This document shows positions 1 through 56,700 of a stretch of DNA of 64,000 nt, in pieces. Position 1 is the stretch's first letter, and each line of letters begins with the position of its first letter. Origin of the DNA: Bremia lactucae (lineage: Eukaryota; Oomycota; Peronosporomycetes; Peronosporales; Peronosporaceae). The notes under the pieces were generated by a model. That model was not told the origin of the DNA. It saw only the letters and a program-made list of their open reading frames with translations, and did not search any database. The stretch lies in assembly GCF_004359215.1 (NCBI RefSeq), contig NC_090617.1, positions 2,862,356 through 2,926,355 on the forward strand, read 5' to 3'. The translations under genes and the position numbers were made by a program.

Positions 1-2382
1 TTAGCAGGTCCAGAACCCATGGATCTTTCTTACGTCGAAAGCGAGAGACCTCGCTTTTCGAGCAATAAGCGATCGCAGAATTGTCATCGCTGCCAAAAAT
101 TAGGACACTACGCTCATGAGTGTAGTGCCCCACTCCCAGCACCGAAAGGTACTGAACGTGATTTTGGACCGTATGCCAAAAAGGGCAACGGTCGCGGGTC
201 CGACGTTGTTGCAAAATCGCAACAGCGAGGCGGAACGCAAAAAAACGGTCGAGGTCAGTAGGGGCGCAACGCCCTACTGATCCAGCAACCTTAAGAGAAT
301 TTGCAGTCTTGAACTAAAGTTACTCCAGACACACAATCATTATGTGTCTTTGCACCTGGTGATGAGGAATTCCTCATCACCTTGAAGTTAAAAGTGACAA
401 ATGATTTGTCACTCAGAGCCCTAGTGGACAGCGAAGCGTCGAATAATTTTTTTCGTCGCCAGTCGCTAGAGAATCGTAGGCTCAACTATGTTGAGCGCGA
501 CATCCTTCCAACTAGGATAACGGTGGGTCTAGCGACAGGCGCATCGATAGCAGTAATGAAACGCGTAGTGAGATTTCGCTACACGTCAAAAGATTAGTAG
601 TATGATAATGATTTCATCGTACTGGATTTAAATGACAAATTAGATGTAATCCTAGGTTTACCTTGGCTCAGAAAATACGAGCCAAGGATCAGCTGGCAGC
701 ATCGATTCGTAAAGATGCCTGCCACTTGTTCATCAGATGGCCATCTGATAAACGTCTTAGCGCATCCACAAGCGTGTGGATGTACTACGAGTGAGTGCGA
801 TGGCCTCATTTGTGGTACAGTCGTTAGTACGACTGCTCAAGATCACCGGGTGATATTTAATTACCCTGTGGCGTCAGATGCCGGCGGCTGTGCGAATGCA
901 CAGGCAGCGCCGAAGGTCCACCACTCAAATAAGTCGTGTGGATTGAGACATAAATGTACGCCTAGCGGGCGTCGTTCAAGGAAGATACCGGTTTTCAAAA
1001 ATGGGCAACACGATGATCCTAGGTCGAGTAGAGAGTCGACCGTAGAGGACCCGACTGTGATAGCGCAATCACACTCGGAAGACGTTGAGGGAATAAGTCC
1101 CTACGTACTTGAGTAGAAAGCTCCTCAAATACTTAAAGCTAAAGCGACAAGACATCAGCATCCCGAGAGATTAATCTTTTAGCAGCCTCTGGAAAAAGGC
1201 TCTCAGGAAGAAAACGAAAAAATGAATGTCTTGGTTAATGACGGATCAAGAGTAGCCGCTTATACTATTGATCTGTTTGCCTCCGAAGTAAATTCGGAGA
1301 TATTTTAATTACCAACCCTAACATCGGAACGGTTGTTGAGAAATCTGCAAAGTGGTAGAATCAAGCAGATCTGCGTACTAGTCCCAGACGACGAATACGT
1401 AACCTATATTCATCAGCGATATTTCTTGCAGAGAACGAACGGATTTTTAGCAGCTCTTCGATGGACGAAAGTATCCTTGATGTGAAGACTTGGATTGAGA
1501 GAGATATTACTCAATCCTGGGAGTCACCTAAGACAATCCTAAATACAAGAATTTGATTAATCTCAAAGATGTATTCCCTAAAGCAGTTCCATGCGAGTTG
1601 CCTACGGATAAAGGCACTCGACATGAGACCTAACTCAAACTGGTCTCAAAGTACTGTGTCATGAAGCAGTGGCCACTGACTCGTGAACAAATACTTTATC
1701 GATAAATTAAAAGCAGGCATGTAAGGGAGTCAACCTCCGCACATAGCTTTCCGACCTTCTGTGTGCGAAAGGCCACAGGAGGGTGGCGGATAATGCACGC
1801 ATTCAATAAACCGAATGCTGCAACGGTACCGGCTCAAACGCCGAAACCTAGAAAAGACGTAATTATCGATAGTATGACTAAAAGAACCATCTTTTCGTCT
1901 GTGGATCTAATGGATGGATTCTATTAGATCCTTCTGCGTGAACGGGACATCCGGTACACAGCAGTAAGCACTCCCAGTGGGATGCTCTGGGAATGGCTAG
2001 TAATGACACAGGGACTTAGTACCGCCCCTGCATCATTCCTCAGATGCGCAACGAATCTGTCTAGACCGGTGCGAGTATTCGCAGCGAGTAAATTCGACGA
2101 TAAAATCGTCCAAAGCCGGGCTATGGACGGAAAGACGGACGTAGGAGTTCAAAAATCTCACGTTCGTCAGGTTCTTACACTTATGCGAAAGCAATAATTG
2201 AACTCAAATCTCACAAAGTGCATATTCGCTGCAAGCGAAATACCACTTTTTGGGTGCATCGTCGGTAGACAAGGCTTGCGTCCTGATCCAGAAAAGATCA
2301 AGGCAATTACCGACTGGCCAGTTCCAGTCAATGTCAAGGGACTTAAAAAGTTCCTTGGTTTAGCGGCGTACTTACACAAGTT
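1..2382 (+). mobile_element. Ty3/gypsy retrotransposon fragment (gag-PR-RT), decayed
   Basis: This is the 5' and middle part of a Ty3/gypsy polyprotein on the plus strand, broken by many stops. A CCHC zinc knuckle (C-x2-C-x4-H-x4-C, in the reading frame 19-261) marks the end of gag. The aspartic protease region follows near 382-597, where the D-S-G triad reads DSEAS, so the catalytic glycine is lost. A linker rich in Cys and Gly lies at 715-1116. Reverse transcriptase motifs follow at 1700-2382, including FPTFCVRK at the start, a VDLMDGFY block ending in a stop, and an altered active-site stretch KFDDKIV. The copy ends abruptly at 2382, where it meets the terminal 10 bases of another element's LTR. 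It cannot encode an active polyprotein. Confidence 0.85.
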
Positions 2383-4203
2383 CCCCGTTACATCACCCCT
2401 CCCTTACACGACAATTACTTTGACTGTCACTGGAAAGAGTTGTCACTATACGGCTACTTACTGAAAAACGATTTTTATTGGTTAGAACTATCATTTTTCA
2501 TTCTATTGCATGTACCACAAGTCCATGCGGTATGCGAATAGTGCAGCGCCTTCGGCTGCGGTTCATGCAGCTGCAGGCGGTGCATTTATTGTCTCGTGCG
2601 GCAGACGTTCCGTCTGCCGTAGTGTCATCTTCTCCCGCAACTCTAAATGTTTCCGGTGCACGTGGTGATACACCACGTGAATGCGATTCTACTTTGGAGG
2701 TCGACTACAAATGCGGGGCGGACGAAAGGTCGACTCGGGAAGAACAGAACACTCGCCTGATCATCGTCAGGCGGCTGCCAATGAGACTTCGAATGAGGGC
2801 GCTCATTCAAGTAGGCGTGCTGGTAGCATTTGCCACAGCATGTTCGGTCCCGACGATGAGGATGATTCCTCATCGCCAGTACGATCTCCCATTCGGTCAC
2901 CTGCACATGTTTCTGTGCAAGGTGACGACGATGGCGTAAGCCATCGTAAGAATGTTGTTGTGGTTCCCCTGCTTTAGAGGGTACCACACAGGGGAGTGAA
3001 GACAACAAAATGTCTCATCTCGCCCCTGAAAAGAAGCCGTGGCTTTGCCAGAACGGCGTATCAATAGCTTGTCTCGAGAAACTACTCCTCACAATAAATA
3101 TCCTTTATTTATTGCGACAAAGCTACATGGCCTTGATCCCAGCGCGAAGAACTTTCGCGCTGAGGAAGATTTCTATCTCGATGCTTTTCTTAAGCATTGA
3201 TGGTTTAGTGGCAATAATAAGCGAGATAAAGTATCGCTTATGCAAGCCTGGAGCGCGTTTATTCGCAATGTCAAATTCATTGGACGCGAAGCTTGGCTCC
3301 AAATACTTAACACGGTTCGCGTTAAGTTTGAGAAACGAACTCCAACCGGTGCAAAGTATAAATTGCATCGGTTGTCACGTGAGGCTGGGCTTCAATGCCT
3401 CACGTGGGGTGATCCCTGTCCGTGTTGTGTAGACAAGTCGAAGAGGGTAAAAGGGGATGTCTATTCCCTTTCTTCGCCCTGGGGGAGGGCTCGCATCTCT
3501 TTTGGAATGCGGGATGCGATTGCCGTTTTGCAATCGATCTACAAGCACCAGGGGCGCGTGTATTCCGATGGACCTTCAAAACCATCGGATGGGTCTCGTC
3601 ATACTGACGGACGAGGCCCTCAACGTTAGCAACCAGCTGGGAACGAGGCTCCTAGCCATCATGCGAAGGTGGATTATCGCGCCAGCGATCACGATAACTC
3701 GTGCGCTGCCCCTTCACATCACAGTAATTTACGATGCGTTCCACAATGAAACATTGACCACCGTGGGAATCCACCAATGGTTGTGGTGGAGGAAGGGGAA
3801 TTAGATCTGACCTATGTGTCGGATCTAGAGTCAAAGATCGACAAACTCGACCACTACCTCCCTGTATTGGAGGAGGGTCTTGATCACGAGCATGGTAAGC
3901 GTCGCTCGTTGGAACAGACAGTGCAGACTCACCGTATCGATCGGTTGGAAGATCGCTCGAAAAGTGGATGCTCCATGTTGGAGTACGAACGGAAGTATCA
4001 CGCTCTTCGTGACAAGCTGTCGTCAGCTCGTCAGATCCGTCTGCGGAAGAAAACGCATACTGATGGTACGGGCGGAGCCGACCAACGCAAAACGTAAAGT
4101 GCGTTTGCATCCTTCGCGGCAGTTCTTTTGTGTATGCATTGCCTCTGCGATGAAGTACACGGAAAGGCTCAATAAACTTGGGTAGTAGTACACTGCTACT
4201 CAC
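2383..4203 (-). mobile_element. Ty3/gypsy chromovirus 3' region: integrase C-terminus, chromodomain and LTR edge, decayed
   Basis: On the minus strand, 4203-3652 reads as the end of a Ty3 integrase. It has the GPFRVLHRRGN-type motif and the GRLRPYHQY motif, then a long linker and a chromodomain-like segment (FIVERI...YRDRW). The segment 3650-2393 has no sense coding and leads to a polypurine tract (read on minus, near 2393-2405). At 2383-2392 are the first ten bases of the LTR (TGTAACGGGG on minus). The rest of the LTR is missing and is replaced by RT sequence of the neighbouring plus-strand copy. The same region exists in inverse orientation at 52372-54297. The plus strand carries an antisense reading frame, listed separately. 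Confidence 0.8.
2600..4097 (+). pseudogene. antisense ORF of the chromovirus, copy 1 (broken)
   Basis: This frame runs opposite to integrase/chromodomain and towards the pol interior. Its N-terminal part is an acidic, Ser/Asp-rich stretch (around 2681-2975, with the motif FGPDDEDDSSSPVRSPIRSP). A middle part follows (MSHLAPEKKPW at 3010, LHGLDPSAKNFRAEEDFYL at about 3123-3180, then MQAWSAFIRNVKFIGREAWL from 3240). The C-terminal part is charged and predicted coiled-coil (about 3777-4097). Between 3123 and 4097 all these pieces lie in one frame, interrupted by stops at 3198, 3627 and about 3744. Upstream there are frameshifts, one of them a lost T near 3050. The homologous frame at 52480-54166 breaks at different places. 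I recognise no known domain. Confidence 0.55.
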
Positions 4204-7640: not shown

Positions 7641-9720
7641 AGCCGGCTCGAAATCGGGTCGGCGTGATAACGGATCAGCGACGACAGTAAGTCGTCCTGA
7701 TTTATATTCCACGGAGAAATGATACTTTGTGAAGAAGGATAGCCACCTCGCCATTCTTTGCGAGGGGTGTGGGCGTGCGTCATGATGCATGGTCCATATA
7801 TACCATGAACGATCTATCTCCTCGGAGGTAGACCCTAAATTTAGCCAGTGCAAATTTCATGGCAAGGAGTTCCTTGTCATGCACTGGGTAATTGCGTTCA
7901 GCTAGTTATGGCTGACGCGATTGGTAACAGACGACGCGCTCCGCGCCGTCCGTATCGCATTCCATTAACGCACAGCCAATTGCGAAATCGCTGGCGTCAC
8001 AGACCCCATGGAATGGTCTGTCTTGATCCTTAATCACCAAATGGGCGATCGCTTCAAGCTTTGCTTGATACCTTCATAGGAACGCCGACAATCAGCGTTC
8101 CATAACCATTTCTCGTCTTTTTTAAGAGACGAGAGAGATGAACTGTCCTCTCTGCATAATTGTGAGAGTACTTGTGCAAGTACGCCGCTGATCCAAGGAA
8201 CTTCTTAAGTCTCTTGACATCGACTGGAATCGGCCAGTCGGTAATTGCCTTGATCTTTTCGGGATCACAGCGCACGCCTTGTTTATTGACGATGCACCCA
8301 AAAAGTGGTATTTCGCTTGCAGCGAATATACACTTTTGAGATTTGAGTTCAATTATTGCTTTCGCATAAGTGTAAGAACCTGACGAACGTGAGATTTATG
8401 AACTCCTACGTCCGTCTTTCCGTCCATAGCTTGGCTTTGGACAATTTTATCGTCGAATTTATTCGCTGCGAATACTCGCACCGGTCTAAACAGATTCGTT
8501 GCGCATCTGAGGAATGATGCAGGGGCGGTGCTAAGTCCCTGTGTCATTACTAGCCATTCCCAGAGCATCCCACTGGGAGTGCTTACTGCTGTGTACCGGA
8601 TGTCCCGTTCACGCAGAAGGATCTAATAGAATCCATCCATTAGATCCACAGACGAAAAGATGGTTCTTTTAGTCATACTATCTATAATTACGTCTTTTTT
8701 AGGTTTCGGCGTTTGAGCCGGTACCGTTGCAGCATTCGGTTTATTGAATGCGTGCATTATCCGCCACCCTCCTGTAACCTTTCGCACACAGAAGGTCGGA
8801 AAGCTATGTGCGGAGGTTGACTCCCTTACATTGCCTGCTTTTAATTTATCGATAAAGTACTTGTTCACGAGTCAGTGGCCACTGCTTCATGACACAGTAC
8901 TTCGAGACCAGTTTAAGTTAGGTCTCATGTCGAGTGCCTTTATCCGTAGGCAACTCGCATGGAACTGCTTTAGGGAATACATCTTTGAGATTAATCAAAT
9001 TCTTGTATTTAGGATTGTCTTAAGTGACTCCCAGGATTGAGTAATATCTCTCTCAATCCAAGTCTTCACATCGAGGACACTTTCGTCCATCGACGAGCTG
9101 CTGAGAATCCGTTCGTTCTCTGCAAGAAATATCGCTGATGAATATAGGTTACGTATTCGTCGTCTGGGACTAGTACGCAGATCTGCTTGATTCTACCACT
9201 ATGCAGATTTCTCAACAACCGTTCCGATGTTAGGGTTGGTAATTAAAAATATCTCCGAATTTACTTCGGAGGCAAACAGATCAATAGTATAAGCGGCTAC
9301 TCTTGATCCGTCATTAACCAAGACATTCATTTTTTCGTTTTCTTCCTGAGAGCCTTTTTCAAGAGGCTGCCAAAGGATTAATCTCTCGGGATGCTGGAGT
9401 CTTGTCGCTTTAGCTTTAAGTTTTTGAGGAGCTTTCTACTCAAGAGCGTAGGGACTTATTCCCTCAACGTCTTCGGAGTGTGATTGCGCTATCACATTCG
9501 GGTCCTCTACGGTCGACTCTCTACTCGACCTAGAATCATCGTGTTGCCCATTTTTGAAAACCGGTATCTTCCTTGAACGACGCCCGCTAGGCGTGCATTT
9601 ATGTCTCAAAATCCTCTCGACTTTTTGAGCGATCGACCTTCGGCGCTGCCTGTGCGTTCGCACAGCCGCCGGCAGCTGACTCCACAGTGTGATTAGTTAT
9701 CACACTGTGGAGTAGAGTAG
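7641..9720 (-). mobile_element. Ty3/gypsy RT-RNase H fragment (inverted copy of 600-2390)
   Basis: Read on minus from 9720, this copy carries the protease linker (9663-9436), then RT (8868-8623 with FPTFCVRKVTGGWRIM and FSSVDLMDGFY). A central RT segment follows (8568-8353, WEWLVMTQGLSTAPASFLRC), then the RT thumb/connection (8352-8054). The RNase H end is at 7853-7620, with FSVEYKSGRLTVVADPLSRR. Frames are broken, and the active-site stretch again reads KFDDKIV. It closely matches the plus-strand copy at 600-2390, so the two form a large inverted repeat with a spacer of about 5.7 kb. Confidence 0.85.
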
Positions 9721-18194: not shown

Positions 18195-20472
18195 ATGGAT
18201 CTTACCCTCGCTGCCAATCTGGAGCATGAGCTGAATCGCTTCCGCCTTAACGGGTCGCCGACATCAGGCTATTCGCCTCATACAGCACACATTGACGTCA
18301 TTGCTGCAGCTTCTGCGGCTGCAGCAGATGCAGAAGATGACGATGTACCGAGTCCGGACGAGGAGGAGAGCGAGGTAGCTAGCCAGCGCACGCGCCATGA
18401 AGGGCTCCTTAAAGCCTCCATTTTGGAAAAAGTGGCCACCGAAAAGCGTCTACGCTGTTTATCTGATGGATCAATGTACGACCAAATTGTCGACGTGGGT
18501 CCTGGCGATTTATTCGAGACATTACCCGAGCCGTACGGTCAATTGTCCGCGTACCAGAAAATTAAAATCACGGCTGTTACCGGAGAGGTTGATCGAGAGA
18601 CAATTGAGTCTTGTGAGCTCATTCGAAAGTGCTTGGCGTTACGCAAGAAATGGATTGCTGTTAATGAGCCCACGCTTCCACAGTCGACGGCCTCCGAAGA
18701 GGGGCATTCCATTCCACGCGCAGCAGGTTTGGCAACCAAGTTACGGCATCGAGACGAAATCCCCTATGAACCATTAAAGCACCCCATCCCAGAAGCTACA
18801 TCTCATCACTATATGATGGTAGACGGTGTGGTGTGGGTATATAACGATAAAGACGCCATTGAGCCTATCAGCCGTGTCGGTCAAATGGAAGAGTACTATA
18901 AAGATCTCTTTGAACTCAAACGAATTATTAATTTTGGGCCTGTGAAGACGCTAGCATTCAAGCGTTTGCAGTTACTAGAAGCGCGCTTTAATCTACATAC
19001 GCTTCTTAATTCGGAGCGTGAGTTTGTAGCGCAAAAGGCCGTTCCTCATCGTGATTTTTATAACGTCCGGAAAGTCGACACGCACATTCATCATTCGGCG
19101 TGTATGAACCAAAAACACTTGCTTCGTTTTATCAAGTCGCGATTGCGAAATTCCCCTGGCGAGATTGTGATTTTTCGAGATGGCCGCTTTATGACGTTAA
19201 GTGAAGTGTTTCGGTCGCTAAATCTCACAGGATATGATCTCAGCGTCGATACGTTAGACATGCACGCGAGTAACACGTTTCACCGCTTTGATCGGTTTAA
19301 TCTCAAGTACAATCCCGCAGGACAAAGCCGTCTTCGCGAGATCTTTTTAAAAACCGACAATTTGATTGCAGGCAAATATCTTGCTGAGATTACCAAGGAA
19401 GTCATTGCTGATTTGCAAGCAAACAAATACCAACTTGTCGAATGGCGAGTGTCGATCTATGGACGCAAACACTCGGAATGGGATAAACTTGGCCGCTGGT
19501 TTTACGTTAACAAATTGACGTCGCCTCACGTTCGCTGGATGGTACAGATTCCACGACTATACTTTTTGTACAAGAAGCTTGGTGAAGTAGACACGTTTCA
19601 GCAAATGCTTGACCACATTTTCCTCCCGCTTTTTGAAGTCACGCGTGATCCATCGACGAATTTGCCATTGCACTTTTTTCTAGAAACGATGGTGGGTTTT
19701 GACTGCGTGGATGATGAAAGTAAGGCCGATTCACTTCATGCTGAACGCGGGAAGAAGTTGCCAAAACCGCAGGATTGGGCTTACGAAGTTAGTCCGCCGT
19801 ACGACTATTGGTGCTACTACCTCTATGCGAATATTGCGGCTTTAAATGAATTCCGTCGTCAAAAAGGTCTCAATATCTTCTCCTTTCGTCCTCATTCGGG
19901 TGAAGCGGGTGATCCAGAGCACTTGGCAGCTGCATTCTTGACGGCCAATGGTATTAATCACGGCATTACCTTGCGGAAATCTGTGTGCTTGCAATATTTG
20001 TATTATTTAACACAAATTGGAATTGCCATGTCGCCGCTAAGTAACAATCGCTTGTTTCTGGCTTATCATCGCAACCCATTTCCCATCTATCACGCACGTG
20101 GTTTAAATGTCTCTCTTAGTACTGACGATCCGGTCATGCTGCACTATACAAAAGATCCACTGCTCGAAGAGTACTCGGTGGCCGTGCAGGTCTGGAAATT
20201 GACGTCTACAGACATGTGCGAGATTGCACGAAATTCGGTTCTGCAGTCTGGTTTTGAACACAAGTTTAAAGAGCATTACCTCGGCCCCCAGTACACATTA
20301 CCTGGATCTCAGGGCAATGGTGAGGGTTTATTGTGATTTTGTGAGTACTTTTTTTAAAGGTTGACTTATTTATTATTGTGACGCAGACATTCGAATGACC
20401 AATGTCCCAGATATCCGCGTGGATTATCGCCACACAACACTTCAAGGCGAATTAGACTTTATTCAGACGTAA
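18195..20472 (+). CDS. AMPD: AMP deaminase
   Basis: It converts AMP to IMP and ammonia in the cytosol as part of the purine nucleotide cycle. Exons are 18195-20319 and 20387-20472, with a 67-nt intron and a product of 736 aa. The N-terminal 80 residues are variable and Ala/Glu-rich. The catalytic domain follows, with the zinc-binding motif KVDTHIHHSACMNQKHLLRF. It also has FRPHSGEAGDPEHL and the signature SLSTDDPVMLHYTKDPLLEEY, then EIARNSVLQSGF. The second exon supplies the usual ending, NDIRMTNVPDIRVDYR. All expected metal and substrate residues I can recognise are present. Confidence 0.95.
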
Positions 20473-51001: not shown

Positions 51002-51452
51002 TGTAACGGGGTGTATCGTTACATGAAATTAACACTAAAAGGTTGTTAATTAATATTATCTAAAAGGTAGATAATATTTGAAGGAAATTACTTTATATAG
51101 TAATTTCCTGAATTCTTATCCATAAATAGGTATAGACCATTATGTCTATTTATTCCGCAGACTAATCAGCTGTAGAAGTAATCAAAGAGAGTTACAAGAT
51201 AAGATAGAGATAAGAATTCAATTACATGTTTAGTATTAGATTATAATTAAGTTTACATTTACAAAGATAGAGCAAGAGACACTTAATTATATTTAATACA
51301 GTTTTCATTTTACCCTCTTAAGTCTAGTTGTCTTAAGAGTAGTCTTCCTCTGCACGTACAGTGTACGTCACTTAACGTAAGGCTCCACTCGCAACTGAAG
51401 CAGTGCGGAGTGGACTGTACTGAAACAGTACAAGTCGTAGTGCCCCGTTACA
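51002..51452 (+). repeat. complete solo LTR of Ty3 family (451 bp)
   Basis: It starts TGTAACGGGGTGTATCGTTA and ends GTAGTGCCCCGTTACA, with inverted ends TGTAACGGGG/CCCCGTTACA. It matches the LTR at 54288-54745 over its length. The flanks are CAAGA and CAAAC, which do not form an exact duplication. No internal element sequence adjoins it, so it is a solo LTR. Confidence 0.85.
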
Positions 51453-52143
51453 CAAACTAAATGTAGCTAAAATAAAAACTCTTGACATATGCAATACTTG
51501 CTGCATAGTAAATCGGAGGTGTTTTTAGTCATTATCAATGTACATCACAGTGACTGGCGAATCCGATCCACATGGACCTTGTCCATGCGTAAATTATAGA
51601 TGCGAGCATCGCGCCCTTTGCTTCCGGGTACCCACAGCCGTAACTTGTAACAGGGAACCTTTTGCTTGTACTGCTTCGGTACTAGCCAGCCTGCACTGAT
51701 AATAGTGAAGGTGAGGTGCCTTCACGTACACGACGTGTAGAGGAATGTTTTAAGTAGCTAAGAAGTCTTAGCTGCTAACGGCTGATACTAAGAAAGCTTA
51801 GTATAGGAAAAAGTAAAGCTGTAACTGTATATTTGAATTCCTACGTAACGATCTTCTTGTCTACTTAATTAAATGTAGTAGTAATATCAAGCTATGTATA
51901 GCGACTCCTTGTGCACCGCTCATTCATGCGTCTAGCAGCGATTGGCGGGGTTGATTAAACTTAAAACAATCAGCAACAGAGCTGTTGTGTAGGCGAGCAC
52001 GTCGTAATGCGGCCACGCTCTACTTAGACACACACCCTAGCACGGCGGAGAAGCGGTTTAACCTGCTTCTCTTGGGTGCAGTGAGGTAGTTGTGGTGGGC
52101 GCGTTAGCGACCTCACCCAACGCACTAAATACTCTGGTCAAGT
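51453..52143. other. unassigned repeat-like region
   Basis: No gene frame is seen. The sequence has LTR-like features (short inverted motifs, TGTACTGCTTCGGTA, and a block at 51640-51760 resembling LTR tails) but no partner copy in the window apart from the following block. Confidence 0.35.
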
Positions 52144-52225
52144 GTCGTCACGGGAGCGGTAATCCGGCTCCTCGTGCGCACTTACCAAGTAGGAAGTAGT
52201 TTTAAGACTGATTTATATTTAATCG
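52144..52225 (+). repeat. dispersed repeat, copy 2
   Basis: Similar to 9736-9810 (GTCACGGGAGCGGTAATCCGG and GGAAGTAGTTTTAAGACTGA). It is cut by the assembly gap shortly after. Confidence 0.5.
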
Positions 52226-52261
52226 TATTCAGTATAAATACCTTTTTTTACCAATTAAATT

Positions 52262-52361: not shown

Positions 52362-52371
52362 TAGCAGTAAA

Positions 52372-54287
52372 CTACTATCCAAGTTCATTGGGCCTTTCCG
52401 TGTACTGCATCGCAGAGGCAATGAATACACAATAGAATTGCCACGTAGGATGCGAACGCATCCTTCGTTTAACGTTGGTCGGCTCCGCACGTACCATCAG
52501 TACGCGGTTTCTTCCGAGGACGGATTTGACCAGCCTTTTCAAGAATCCCTAAAAGATTCTTGTGATCGCGAACCAGATTCAAACATGTTGAGCCTGCAGT
52601 TTCTTATGGCGGCTCCGAATATCCTCGAAACTACGATGAGCTGGCGACAGCTCATCGCGAACAGCATGATACTACCGCTCGTACTCCATCATGGAGTACG
52701 CACTCTTCAAATGGTCTTCCAACCGCTCGATATGGTGATCCTGCACCGTCTGCTCCAACGAGCGACGCTTGCCGCGCTCGCGCTCGCGCTCAAGTCCCTC
52801 CTTCAAATAATGGAAGAAGTGATCGATTTTGTCAATCCTCGACATTAGATCCGACATACAGTTCGGATCTAATTTTTCTTCATCCACCACAACCATTGGT
52901 GGATACCGACGGTGGTCTGCGTTTCCTTGTGGAACGTATCCAGAACCACCGTGATGTGAAGGGGCAGCGAACGAGTTATCTTGTTCGCTGGCGAAGTTAT
53001 CCACCTTCACATGACAGCTGGGAACCTCGTTCCCAGCTAATTGCTGACGTTGAAGGCCTCGTCCGTCAGTATGACGAGACCCACCCGATGGTTCAGAAGG
53101 CCCATCGGAAAACATGCGACCCTACGCTTGTAAATCTTTTGCAAAATGTGTGTCAAAAAAATGTCAATCGCGTCACGCATCTCAATAGAGATGCGAGCCC
53201 TTCCCCAAGGCGAAGAAAGGGAATAGACATCCCCTTTTACCCTCTTCGAGTTGTCTACACAACACGGACAGGGATCACCCCACGTGAGGCATTGAAGCCC
53301 AGCCTCACGTGACAACCGATGTATTTTATACTTTGCACCGGTTGGAGTTCGTTTCTCAAACTTAACGCGAACCGTGTTAAGTATTTGGAGCCAAGCTTCG
53401 CGTCCAATGAATTTGACATTGCGAATAAACGCGCTCCAGGCTTGCATAAGCGTGACTTTATCTCGCTCATTATTGCCACGATACTATCGATGCTTAAGAA
53501 ATCATCGAGATAGAAATCTTCCTCAGCGCGAAAGTTCTTCGCGCTGGGATCAAGGCCATGTAGCTTTGTCGCAATAAATAAAGGATATTTATTGTGAGGA
53601 GTAGTTTTTCCAGACAAGCTATTAATAAGCCGTTCTGGCAAAAGCCACGGCTTCTTTTCAGGGGTGAGATGAGACATTTTATTGTCTTCACTCCCTTGAG
53701 TTGTACCCACTCAAGCCGGGGTACCACAAGAACTTTTCTTACGATGGCTTACGCCATCGTCATCGCCTTGCACAGAAACAGGTGCAGGTGACCGTATGGG
53801 AGATCGAACGGGCGATGAGAATTCATCCTCATCGTCCGATCCAAATAGACTCTTTACTCGTCTATCAGAATGAGCCCTCTCATTCGAAGGCTCATAGTCA
53901 ACCGGCTGACGTCTGTCAGGCGACTGGTTCATCCTCCCCGAGTCGGCCACTTCGTCCGACTCACACTCGTAGTCGACCTCTAAAGAGGAGTCGTATTCAG
54001 GTGGTGCATCGCCACGTGCACTCGCAACATCTAGTGTTGTGCGAGTGGAAGATACTACGGCAGACGTTCCTTCTGCCGCAAGAGATAACAGTGCGTCACC
54101 CGCGGCTGCACGAACCGCAGCCGAAGGCGTAGTACTACCGTCACCCCGCATGAGTTGATTCTTCATGCGATAGAAATTTTAAGATGATGGTTCTAACTAA
54201 TCAACATCGTTTTAAAAATTAAGTGGTCACATAGCTATCACCCCATCCAGTGACAGTCAGATTGATTGTCGTTTAAGGGAGGGGTGA
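52372..54287 (+). mobile_element. Ty3/gypsy chromovirus 3' part: integrase C-terminus, chromodomain, untranslated 3' region
   Basis: The plus strand begins in the integrase C-terminal domain (LLSKFIGPFRVLHRRGN, NVGRLRTYHQY). A frameshift near 52580 disturbs the linker. The chromodomain at 52896-53100 is well kept: FLVERIQNHRDVKGQRTSYL, VRWRSYPPSHDSWEP and QLIADVEGLVRQYDETHP. Chromodomains direct integration of such elements to particular chromatin. After about 53312 no sense coding is seen for 1 kb. It then reaches a polypurine tract (AAGGGAGGGGTGA, 54275-54287) directly before the 3' LTR. The minus strand carries the antisense ORF listed separately. Confidence 0.88.
52480..54166 (-). pseudogene. 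antisense ORF of the chromovirus, copy 2 (near-intact but broken)
   Basis: On minus, 54166-53711 encodes an acidic, Ser-rich N-terminal part with SLFGSDDEDEFSSPVRSPIR. A single TGA then precedes the same-frame part 53710-53255 (MSHLTPEKKPWLLPERLINS, KLHGLDPSAKNFRAEEDFYL). One lost T shifts the frame near 53512. The next pieces are 53447-53037 (MQAWSAFIRNVKFIGREAWL) and 53115-52672, ending in a charged coiled coil (MSRIDKIDHFFHYLKEGLER). A TAG stops it near 52670, where copy 1 stays open. The total would be roughly 560 codons. It overlaps the chromodomain and integrase end on the other strand. Its start lies 121 bp from the 3' LTR. Confidence 0.6.
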
Positions 54288-54745
54288 TGTAACGGGGTCT
54301 ATCGTTGCATGAAATTAGCACTTAAAGGCTGTTAATTAATATATTATCATAAAGGTAGATAATATTTGCAGGATATTACTTTATCTAATAATATTCAGAA
54401 TTCTTGTCCATAAATAGGTATAGACCGTTATACCTATTTAATCCGCAGACTAATCAGCTGTAGGATTAATCAAAGAGAGAATTAAAGATAAGAAAGAGAT
54501 AATAATTCAATTAGATGTTTATTAATGATTATAATTACGTACGCATTTACAAAGATAGAAAAAGAGACACTTAATTATATATATATACAGTTTTCATTAT
54601 ACCCTCTTTAAGCTAGTTACCCTTAAAGAGAAGTCTTGCTCTGCACGTACTAGTCTACGTGAAAAACCGTAGGGCACCACTCGCAACTGAAGCAGTGCGA
54701 AGTGGACTTGTACTGAAGCAGTACAAGTTGTAGTGCCCCGTTACA
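54288..54745 (+). repeat. 3' LTR of the chromovirus (458 bp)
   Basis: It begins TGTAACGGGGTCTATCGTTG right after the polypurine tract and ends GTAGTGCCCCGTTACA. It is a close homologue of the LTR at 51002-51452 but with clear differences. The next base is the first base of the copia LTR. Confidence 0.92.
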
Positions 54746-54942: not shown

Positions 54943-56700
54943 TTAATTAATCGGCGAGCTGTGACTTGGTTTCAATATACTCCAGCTGAATGACCTTGGC
55001 CTTGACTTGGTCACGAACAAAGTCATAACGAATATCAATGTATTTCGCTCGAATTTGATAGCCTTCGTTCTTCGCAATAGCAATCGCACTCTGGTTGTCT
55101 TCATACACAACCACTGGAGCGTCATCTCGACCTTCATCTCCATCAATAAATTCTTTGACCACAAAATTTCGTGAATGCACAACGAAAGTACCACATATTC
55201 AGCTTCAGCAGTACTTAGTGATACAGTGATCTGAAGCTTCGACTTAATTTTAACTGGAGAGTCATTGACCATCACCATGACTCCAGCTGTCAAACGTCGA
55301 ATATCTTTGTTACTTCCCCAATCTGCGTCTTTAAATGCACTATGCTTCAGGTCGCCAGGCTTGCTTCGATAACAAATTCCGTTTGTTGCAGCCGACTTTA
55401 GGTAGCGCAGCACACGAATGGCTGCATTCCGGTATTCTTCACTCGGTTTTTCCAAATGTCGACTTAGTCGACCTACCGCAAATGCAATATCAGGTACTGT
55501 ACCTGTCGCCACATAAAAGAGTGATCCTACCAGAGATCGATACGGTCGATTCTCCATTTTCGGTTCCTTTCCTCGCACTTAAGCATGGCTTGACCTTCCA
55601 CACTTGGGTTGTAAACAACTTTTTCCCCGACTTGATTGAAGTTTACGACCATTCTGTCAATGCACGCATTTTGGCTGATCTTGAGCTTCCTTGTATGCTG
55701 TGCATAGTCCACCTCAATGCCGAGAATATATATCACATTGCCTAGCGTCTTAAACATAAAATGACTTGCAAGTTCATCGGAACTTTGTCAGTTAAATCAG
55801 CAGAAGTACCTTTAATCAGCATATCATCGACATACAGCGTCACGTAAATTCACGAAAGGTTTCCATCGTGATGGACAAAGACACACGGGTCCGAAACACA
55901 TGACACAAAACCTATGCTGCAAAACACCTTCGAAATTGTCTTGAACCATGTTGCAGCAGCCTGTTTTAATCCATAAAACTTCTTACAAGCTTCAAAATTT
56001 GACCTAAGTCCATGTCGACTTCCTGAGGCGTAGAATGTATACATCTTCGTTCAAAACGCCATTTATGAGCGCAGTATCGCTATCATACTGGTGAATTGTC
56101 ATTTCGTGATGACATCACATAGCCAGAAAGACGCGAATAGAATTCATGTTCGCAACCGGCGAATAAATTTCGTGGTAGTCAACTCCATAGGTTTGACAAT
56201 AACCTAACGCCACAAGTCGAACTTTGTACCGATTGATATCACCGTATTGGTTTCTCTTGATTGCAAAAACCCACTTGGATCCAATCACCTTTTTGTGGAG
56301 AATTTTTCACTGCAGTCCATGTCTTTTTGTTATCCAATGCCTTAAGTTTGACCTTGATCGCATCACTCCACATCTTGGATTGAGGAGACTCCATTGCATC
56401 TTGGTATGTAGATGGAGTTTCGAATACTGCATTTGCTTGCTCGTACGCAATTCGATATCTCTTTAAGGCCCGAGCCTCTGGCTCCTCACTGCGCGATGTA
56501 CCATGTACAGCAGACGTCCTGACTGGAACCAAAGCTTGGTCTCCATAGTTCGATGACGGTAACGCGAGCGGGGCATTTTGACCACCAATTTGAGATGATT
56601 GCACCATAGAGAAATCAGTGCGATTATCCAAGTCCCCCCTGGGCACAATGTCTCGAGTCGTATCCATATCCAAATCAGTTGGCTCCAAGTAATATCATCG
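54943..56700 (-). pseudogene. copia reverse transcriptase and RNase H region
   Basis: The RT active site is intact (LYVDDMLIKGTSADL, about 55845-55793). Upstream RT pieces lie at 56688-56239 (SKMWSDAIKVKLKALDNKKTW) and 56044-55850. The end of RT and RNase H is at 55578-54943 (YRSLVGSLFYVATGTVPDIA, then RLTAGVMVMVN and VSLSTAEAEYVVLSL). The frame changes several times, so no single protein can be made. Confidence 0.85.

What the first reader, a model, noticed from the sequence alone, without database searches (positions are those of the whole stretch)
52480..54166. Long antisense ORF opposite integrase/chromodomain of a Ty3 chromovirus
The minus strand carries a frame of about 560 codons running from next to the 3' LTR into pol. 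It covers a 1-kb region with no sense coding and then overlaps the chromodomain and integrase end. It is broken here by one TGA, one lost T and one TAG. None of these breaks is shared with the homologous copy at 2600-4097, which argues that the ancestor was open. The product would have an acidic Ser/Asp N-terminus, a middle with KLHGLDPSAKNFRAEEDFYL and a charged coiled-coil end. Additional antisense ORFs between pol and the 3' LTR are known from plant Ty3/gypsy elements. I know of no described function for one in oomycetes.
Basis: partly seen in the sequence, partly recalled or inferred. Interest (0 to 1): 0.8.

Follow-up and report, generated by a model that had tools for sequence, protein, structure and literature searches.

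The report
Conserved backwards gene in mildew retrotransposon
A virus-like jumping element in lettuce downy mildew carries an extra protein gene written on the opposite DNA strand, partly on top of its integrase gene, and natural selection kept that protein intact while the element was active; what the protein does is still unknown.

Summary
The window is Bremia lactucae, lettuce downy mildew. The antisense frame is a real gene: about 560 codons, starting about 120 nt from the 3' LTR, its last ~238 codons opposite the integrase end and chromodomain. The window copy is decayed (three frame changes, four in-frame stops). In 55 aligned copies, private changes ignore codon position (242/255/239), while variants shared by 10 or more copies are mostly third-position (6/4/26); 25 of 36 shared against 166 of 736 private changes are synonymous, p=8e-9. 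The arrangement recurs in three diverged lineages of this genome; dN/dS between two of them is 0.13-0.23. Homologues are annotated in Peronospora and Hyaloperonospora. A sense gag-like region exists, so this gene is accessory. The product has an acidic disordered N-terminus, a basic helical core without a clear structural match, a long coiled coil and a basic tail. Most likely it is a nuclear regulator, comparable in role to plant antisense accessory ORFs and HTLV HBZ; that is inferred. Antisense accessory ORFs are known in plants and a fungus: a new variant of a known kind.

The parts
52463..54166 (-). Antisense accessory ORF (decayed in this copy), about 560 codons
53189..54166 (-). Part of the antisense ORF with no sense coding opposite: acidic disordered N-terminus and most of the basic helical core
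52466..53188 (-). Part of the antisense ORF opposite pol: end of core, linker, coiled coil, basic tail
52363..53188 (+). Sense pol end: SH3-like integrase end (about 52363-52503) and chromodomain (about 52869-53090); stop of copy L016 maps to 53186-53188
54167..54287 (.). About 120 nt between antisense start codon and 3' LTR, with a purine-rich tract next to the LTR
54288..54745 (+). 3' LTR; presumed seat of the antisense promoter (inferred)
51002..51452 (+). Second LTR copy on the 5' side (part of repeat family D1, 88% over 139 nt)
2525..4094 (+). Second, more decayed copy of the same antisense ORF in the window

Best explanation
A genuine accessory gene of a chromodomain Ty3/gypsy retrotransposon of downy mildews, encoded antisense to gag-pol and sharing about 0.7 kb with the integrase/chromodomain end. 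Shown: protein coding, purifying selection while the element was active, the same arrangement in three lineages of this genome, relatives in other species. Inferred: it is translated from an antisense message starting in or beside the 3' LTR; the K-K/R-x-R tail takes it to the nucleus; the coiled coil makes it oligomeric; and the basic core with the acidic N-terminus acts on element DNA or chromatin to tune transcription or integration of the element, as has been proposed for plant antisense ORFs and is known for HTLV HBZ. I put 0.97 on 'real, selected protein-coding gene' and 0.45 on 'nuclear regulator'; the confidence below is for the whole statement.
For: Codon-level selection in the part without sense coding (between lineages). 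No antisense stops in the overlap where synonymous shuffling gives 2 or more. Antisense chromodomain found in 19 of 19 loci (12 of them repeat earlier copies), 10 of 10, 8 of 8 (L072 only 23 residues). Homologues in three named species. Sense gag-like region present, so it is additional. N-terminus pI 4.5-5.3 in 8 of 8 proteins, core pI 8.6-9.9 in the 7 of 8 that were cut correctly, K-K/R-x-R within the last 40 residues in 58 of 83 proteins of 450 aa or more. Helix 429-536.
Against: No transcript, protein or localisation data. No match to a known DNA-binding domain. No convincing initiator motif upstream of the start. 25 of 83 long homologues lack the tail motif in the last 40 residues. Variants shared by 2-9 copies show no positional bias, and the overlap shows no significant synonymous excess in either frame. 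The antisense arrangement could not be checked in other species, for lack of their DNA.
Confidence: 0.45

Rival explanations
1. The protein is an architectural partner of integrase or of the pre-integration complex (nuclear import or chromatin targeting, acting with the chromodomain) and not a regulator of transcription.
For: Coiled coil and basic core; genes overlap at the targeting module in three lineages.
Against: No physical evidence; overlap of genes does not show interaction of products.
Confidence: 0.25
2. The protein assists particle assembly or RNA packaging as a second structural protein.
For: All-helical core and coiled coil.
Against: A gag-like sense region with a zinc knuckle is present; no Gag or capsid match for the product.
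Confidence: 0.1
3. Only the antisense RNA matters (silencing or decoy RNA); the open frame is incidental.
For: Antisense transcripts without coding role are known in other retroelements (PMC7264820, parts 1-2 read).
Against: Synonymous excess in old shared variants, dN/dS 0.13-0.23 between lineages B and C, conserved protein in other species.
Confidence: 0.03
4. A captured host gene or nested element that happens to lie in this retrotransposon.
For: Homologues are annotated as ordinary genes in Peronospora and Hyaloperonospora.
Against: Same position opposite the chromodomain in lineages A, B and C. I found no copy outside the element among the loci read, but only those loci were read.
Confidence: 0.12
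5. A chance frame kept open by composition or by the sense gene.
For: Antisense frames opposite coding sequence can be open by composition.
Against: About 57% of the frame has no sense coding opposite; shuffle and simulation tests; codon selection; homologues across species.
Confidence: 0.02

Closest known systems
Antisense additional ORFs between pol and 3' LTR (aORF-3R) of plant Ty3/gypsy elements: Grande GENE23, RIRE2, Retand with TRP28; also fungal Boty (PMC7264820 parts 1-2 of 3 read; PMC11963269 passages)
   Same: Antisense to gag-pol, next to the 3' LTR, kept in most copies, no clear relatives of known function, in some cases nuclear; function unknown
   Different: Unrelated protein, downy mildew host, and the frame runs about 0.7 kb into pol opposite the chromodomain; the passages I saw do not describe such an overlap (the word 'overlap' occurs 0 times in PMC11963269)
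HTLV-1 HBZ (named in PMC11963269 passages; details recalled)
   Same: Antisense gene started from the 3' LTR side; acidic part, basic parts and a C-terminal coiled coil; works on the element's own expression (here inferred only)
   Different: No bZIP domain found in P0001; no homology claimed; retrovirus, not retrotransposon
Chronos chromodomain Ty3/gypsy elements of oomycetes (PMC5348765, passages)
   Same: Oomycete Ty3/gypsy element with a chromodomain at the integrase end
   Different: The main text has 0 occurrences of 'antisense'; the extra RNase H of Chronos could not be tested because pol is mostly withheld

Membership tests
Antisense aORF-3R of LTR retrotransposons | Encoded antisense to gag-pol | tested here: met
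   Sense chromodomain on the other strand: 19 of 19 loci, 10 of 10, 8 of 8
[quoted passage not shown]
   Starts about 120 nt from the 3' LTR; in addition overlaps the end of pol by about 0.7 kb
Antisense aORF-3R of LTR retrotransposons | Conserved frame across copies | tested here: met
   0 of 535 codons a stop in most of 55 copies; old variants mostly synonymous
Antisense aORF-3R of LTR retrotransposons | Antisense transcription and nuclear product (shown for some members) | not testable with these tools
   No RNA or localisation data
Ty3/gypsy chromovirus | Chromodomain at the integrase C-terminus | tested here: met
   Pfam Chromo 54 and 51 bits, cut-off 25.1
Ty3/gypsy chromovirus | RT phylogeny within the chromovirus clade | not testable with these tools
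   pol is largely withheld (N runs); not pursued
Chronos | Additional archaeal/plant-type RNase H in pol | not testable with these tools
   pol is largely withheld
Plant Retand antisense TRP28 proteins (PF04195) | TRP28 domain | tested here: not met
   No such match at E<=1 for P0001 or for L013 and L007
HBZ | bZIP domain | tested here: not met
   No bZIP match at E<=1 for P0001, L013 or L007
Tyrosine recombinase core-binding (CB) domain, the automatic name of homologue P0005 | Sequence or fold match to that domain | tested here: inconclusive
   No such family among the 25 of 48 Pfam families shown; fold searches of the core gave no clear match

The most novel reading that the evidence does not exclude
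Downy-mildew retrotransposons evolved their own HBZ-like system: an antisense-encoded nuclear regulator with a new helical fold, whose coiled coil is written on the reverse strand of the chromodomain in a phase where the second codon position of each frame is the third of the other, so that the targeting module and its regulator are locked together in evolution.
Probability: 0.22. Interest if true: 0.82.

Novelty: new variant of a known kind. Interest (0 to 1): 0.62.

Why it matters
The role of antisense accessory genes of LTR retrotransposons is an open puzzle in plants. Here one from a distant eukaryotic lineage passes a direct test of protein-level selection, which suggests that such genes meet a recurrent need of these elements. 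It is also a long antisense overlap in which both frames appear to encode proteins, with many natural copies to study. In practice, large sets of predicted proteins in downy mildews (database clusters of 1335 and 524 sequences in Peronospora matthiolae), and one protein named as an effector candidate, belong to this family.

Full report
What is there. The window is from Bremia lactucae: the AMP deaminase at 18195-20333 is 100% identical over 99% to a B. lactucae protein from a contig of 5,324,134 bases, the length of contig C8 that holds the window. At 52.4-54.7 kb lies the 3' end of an old Ty3/gypsy element: an SH3-like integrase end and a chromodomain on the + strand, about 1 kb without sense coding, and a 3' LTR at 54288-54745.

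Was the frame open? A DNA search of the genome scored 40 matches: the window copy and 39 others, 88-90% identical to it (2808 candidates, so a lower bound). Median pairwise identities of the 40 are 0.90-0.94, a star-like set. Long natural open pieces of the antisense frame reach 472 aa (L013) and 447 aa (L007). With copies found by protein search, 55 distinct family-A copies were aligned (L060 and L063 kept apart, 12 repeats dropped). No codon of the 535 examined is a stop in more than four copies; the two other antisense frames have 9 of 533 and 45 of 529 codons that are stops in most copies. Ten of 55 copies have no reference-phase stop.

Selection. In the codons without sense coding opposite, changes private to one copy are spread evenly over codon positions (242/255/239), as expected of dead copies. 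Variants shared by 10 or more of the 55 copies, the oldest class, fall 6/4/26 (p=4e-6). By effect, 25 of 36 of these are synonymous against 166 of 736 private ones (Fisher p=8e-9). Against this reading: variants shared by 2-3 and 4-9 copies show no positional bias (135/131/143 and 34/27/29), so the signal sits in the oldest class; and 36 variants on related copies are not fully independent. Private deletions are mostly frame-breaking (83 against 10). In the overlap with pol, 14 of 36 (antisense frame) and 11 of 36 (sense frame) old variants are synonymous, neither a significant excess; double coding would give that, but so would weak selection. The evidence in the overlap is the lack of stops: with the pol protein of copy L016 kept and synonymous codons shuffled, antisense stops averaged 8.7 and never fell under 2 in 20000 trials, against 0 observed; with uniform synonymous choice a fraction of 0.0006 of 5000 had none.

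Depth. Protein search with the natural L013 piece gave 125 homologues, a profile of 13 gave 127; 120 of each are listed. The named ones come from Peronospora matthiolae, P. effusa and Hyaloperonospora arabidopsidis; no Phytophthora name appears among those listed, though the search needs shared short words. One P. matthiolae cluster stands for 1335 sequences and another for 524, which suggests young intact copies there. In Bremia, further searches found diverged lineages B (L060) and C (L063, L071-L078), whose frames are roughly 37-45% identical to family A, with lower values for some C-terminal pieces. A chromodomain lies on the opposite strand within the frame in 19 of 19 loci (12 of them repeats), 10 of 10, and 8 of 8 (L072 shows only 23 residues). 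Worked out by hand from the coordinates of L053 (A), L060 (B) and L063 (C), first codon positions face each other and second faces third in all three. In the non-overlap core, B against C gives dN 0.21-0.28 and dS 1.07-2.01, ratio 0.13-0.23 (9 pairs). Within C, where decay of the copies weighs most, the ratio is about 0.4-1.0, and in 9 of all 55 pairs position 3 does not exceed both others. A (L012) against the rest is nearly saturated or saturated at synonymous sites. In the overlap, A against C (L016-L063) shows no synonymous excess in the antisense frame (pN 0.434, pS 0.446), and the chromodomain is better conserved (69%) than the antisense product (37%), so there the sense gene dominates.

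The element. In the copy L012/L070 a 5' LTR lies about 8.6 kb from the end of the 3' LTR; the two LTRs are 88.6% identical. Behind the 5' LTR are sense pieces that read like gag, with a zinc knuckle slightly under Pfam's cut-off and a protease-like motif (recalled). The antisense gene is therefore most likely additional to gag-pol. The start codon lies about 120 nt from the 3' LTR, so the promoter should lie in the LTR or that gap; a scan for the oomycete initiator motif (recalled) found nothing better than 4 mismatches of 16.

The protein. AlphaFold2 with 37 homologues gives a low-confidence first ~168 residues, a helical domain at about 177-342, a low-confidence linker and one helix 429-536 (mean pLDDT 62.4). 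The core alone, with 41 sequences, has mean pLDDT 87.8 and pTM 0.83, but neither model matched a solved structure clearly and the full model matched no viral model clearly. The N-terminus is acidic (pI 4.5-5.3 in 8 of 8 proteins); the core is basic and 184-185 residues long in 7 of 8 (the eighth was mis-cut by my pattern); the tail holds K-K/R-x-R in 58 of 83 proteins of at least 450 aa. The core is encoded mainly where no sense coding lies opposite; linker, coiled coil and tail are encoded opposite pol.

Mechanism. Best supported is an accessory protein made from an antisense message and acting in the nucleus on the element's own transcription or integration. Coding, selection and arrangement are shown. 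Message, localisation and action are inferred from architecture and from analogy with plant antisense ORFs, some of whose proteins are nuclear and all of unknown function (PMC7264820, parts 1-2 of 3 read; PMC11963269, passages), and with HTLV HBZ (partly recalled). It is not filed as HBZ or TRP28: neither domain was found in P0001, L013 or L007. I saw no print on such a gene in oomycetes in the listings; PMC5348765, on oomycete chromodomain elements, and PMC6570648, the B. lactucae genome paper, have 0 occurrences of 'antisense' in the main text (passages seen).

Noticed in passing
window 51460-52255: Three other places in the genome match this stretch over its whole length at 99-100%, unlike the old element around it, so it is probably a recent insertion or duplication; its right ~270 bp match about 36 further places at 86-95% (capped at 40 scored).
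   Followed up: partly
homologues P0119 and P0005 (Hyaloperonospora arabidopsidis): P0119 is named 'RxLR effector candidate protein' and P0005 'Core-binding (CB) domain-containing protein', yet both are relatives of this retrotransposon antisense protein. The names look automatic and misleading.
   Followed up: partly
window 943-2381 and 8170-9609: Large inverted repeat of about 1.4 kb, 90-98% complementary, with about 6 kb between the arms.
   Followed up: no
window 54943-55578, minus strand: ORF of 211 aa that reads like the RNase H end of a Ty1/copia pol (by eye).
   Followed up: no
window 12358-42169: Host genes by Pfam: RecF/SMC-type ATPase pieces, class-III aminotransferase, AMP deaminase, CAF1 ribonuclease, bZIP factor, Gaa1, actin-like protein.
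   Followed up: no
genome G000: A young retroelement family: Retrotrans_gag matches with one identical score (61.3 bits) at most of the 150 scored places, unlike the old family described here.
   Followed up: no
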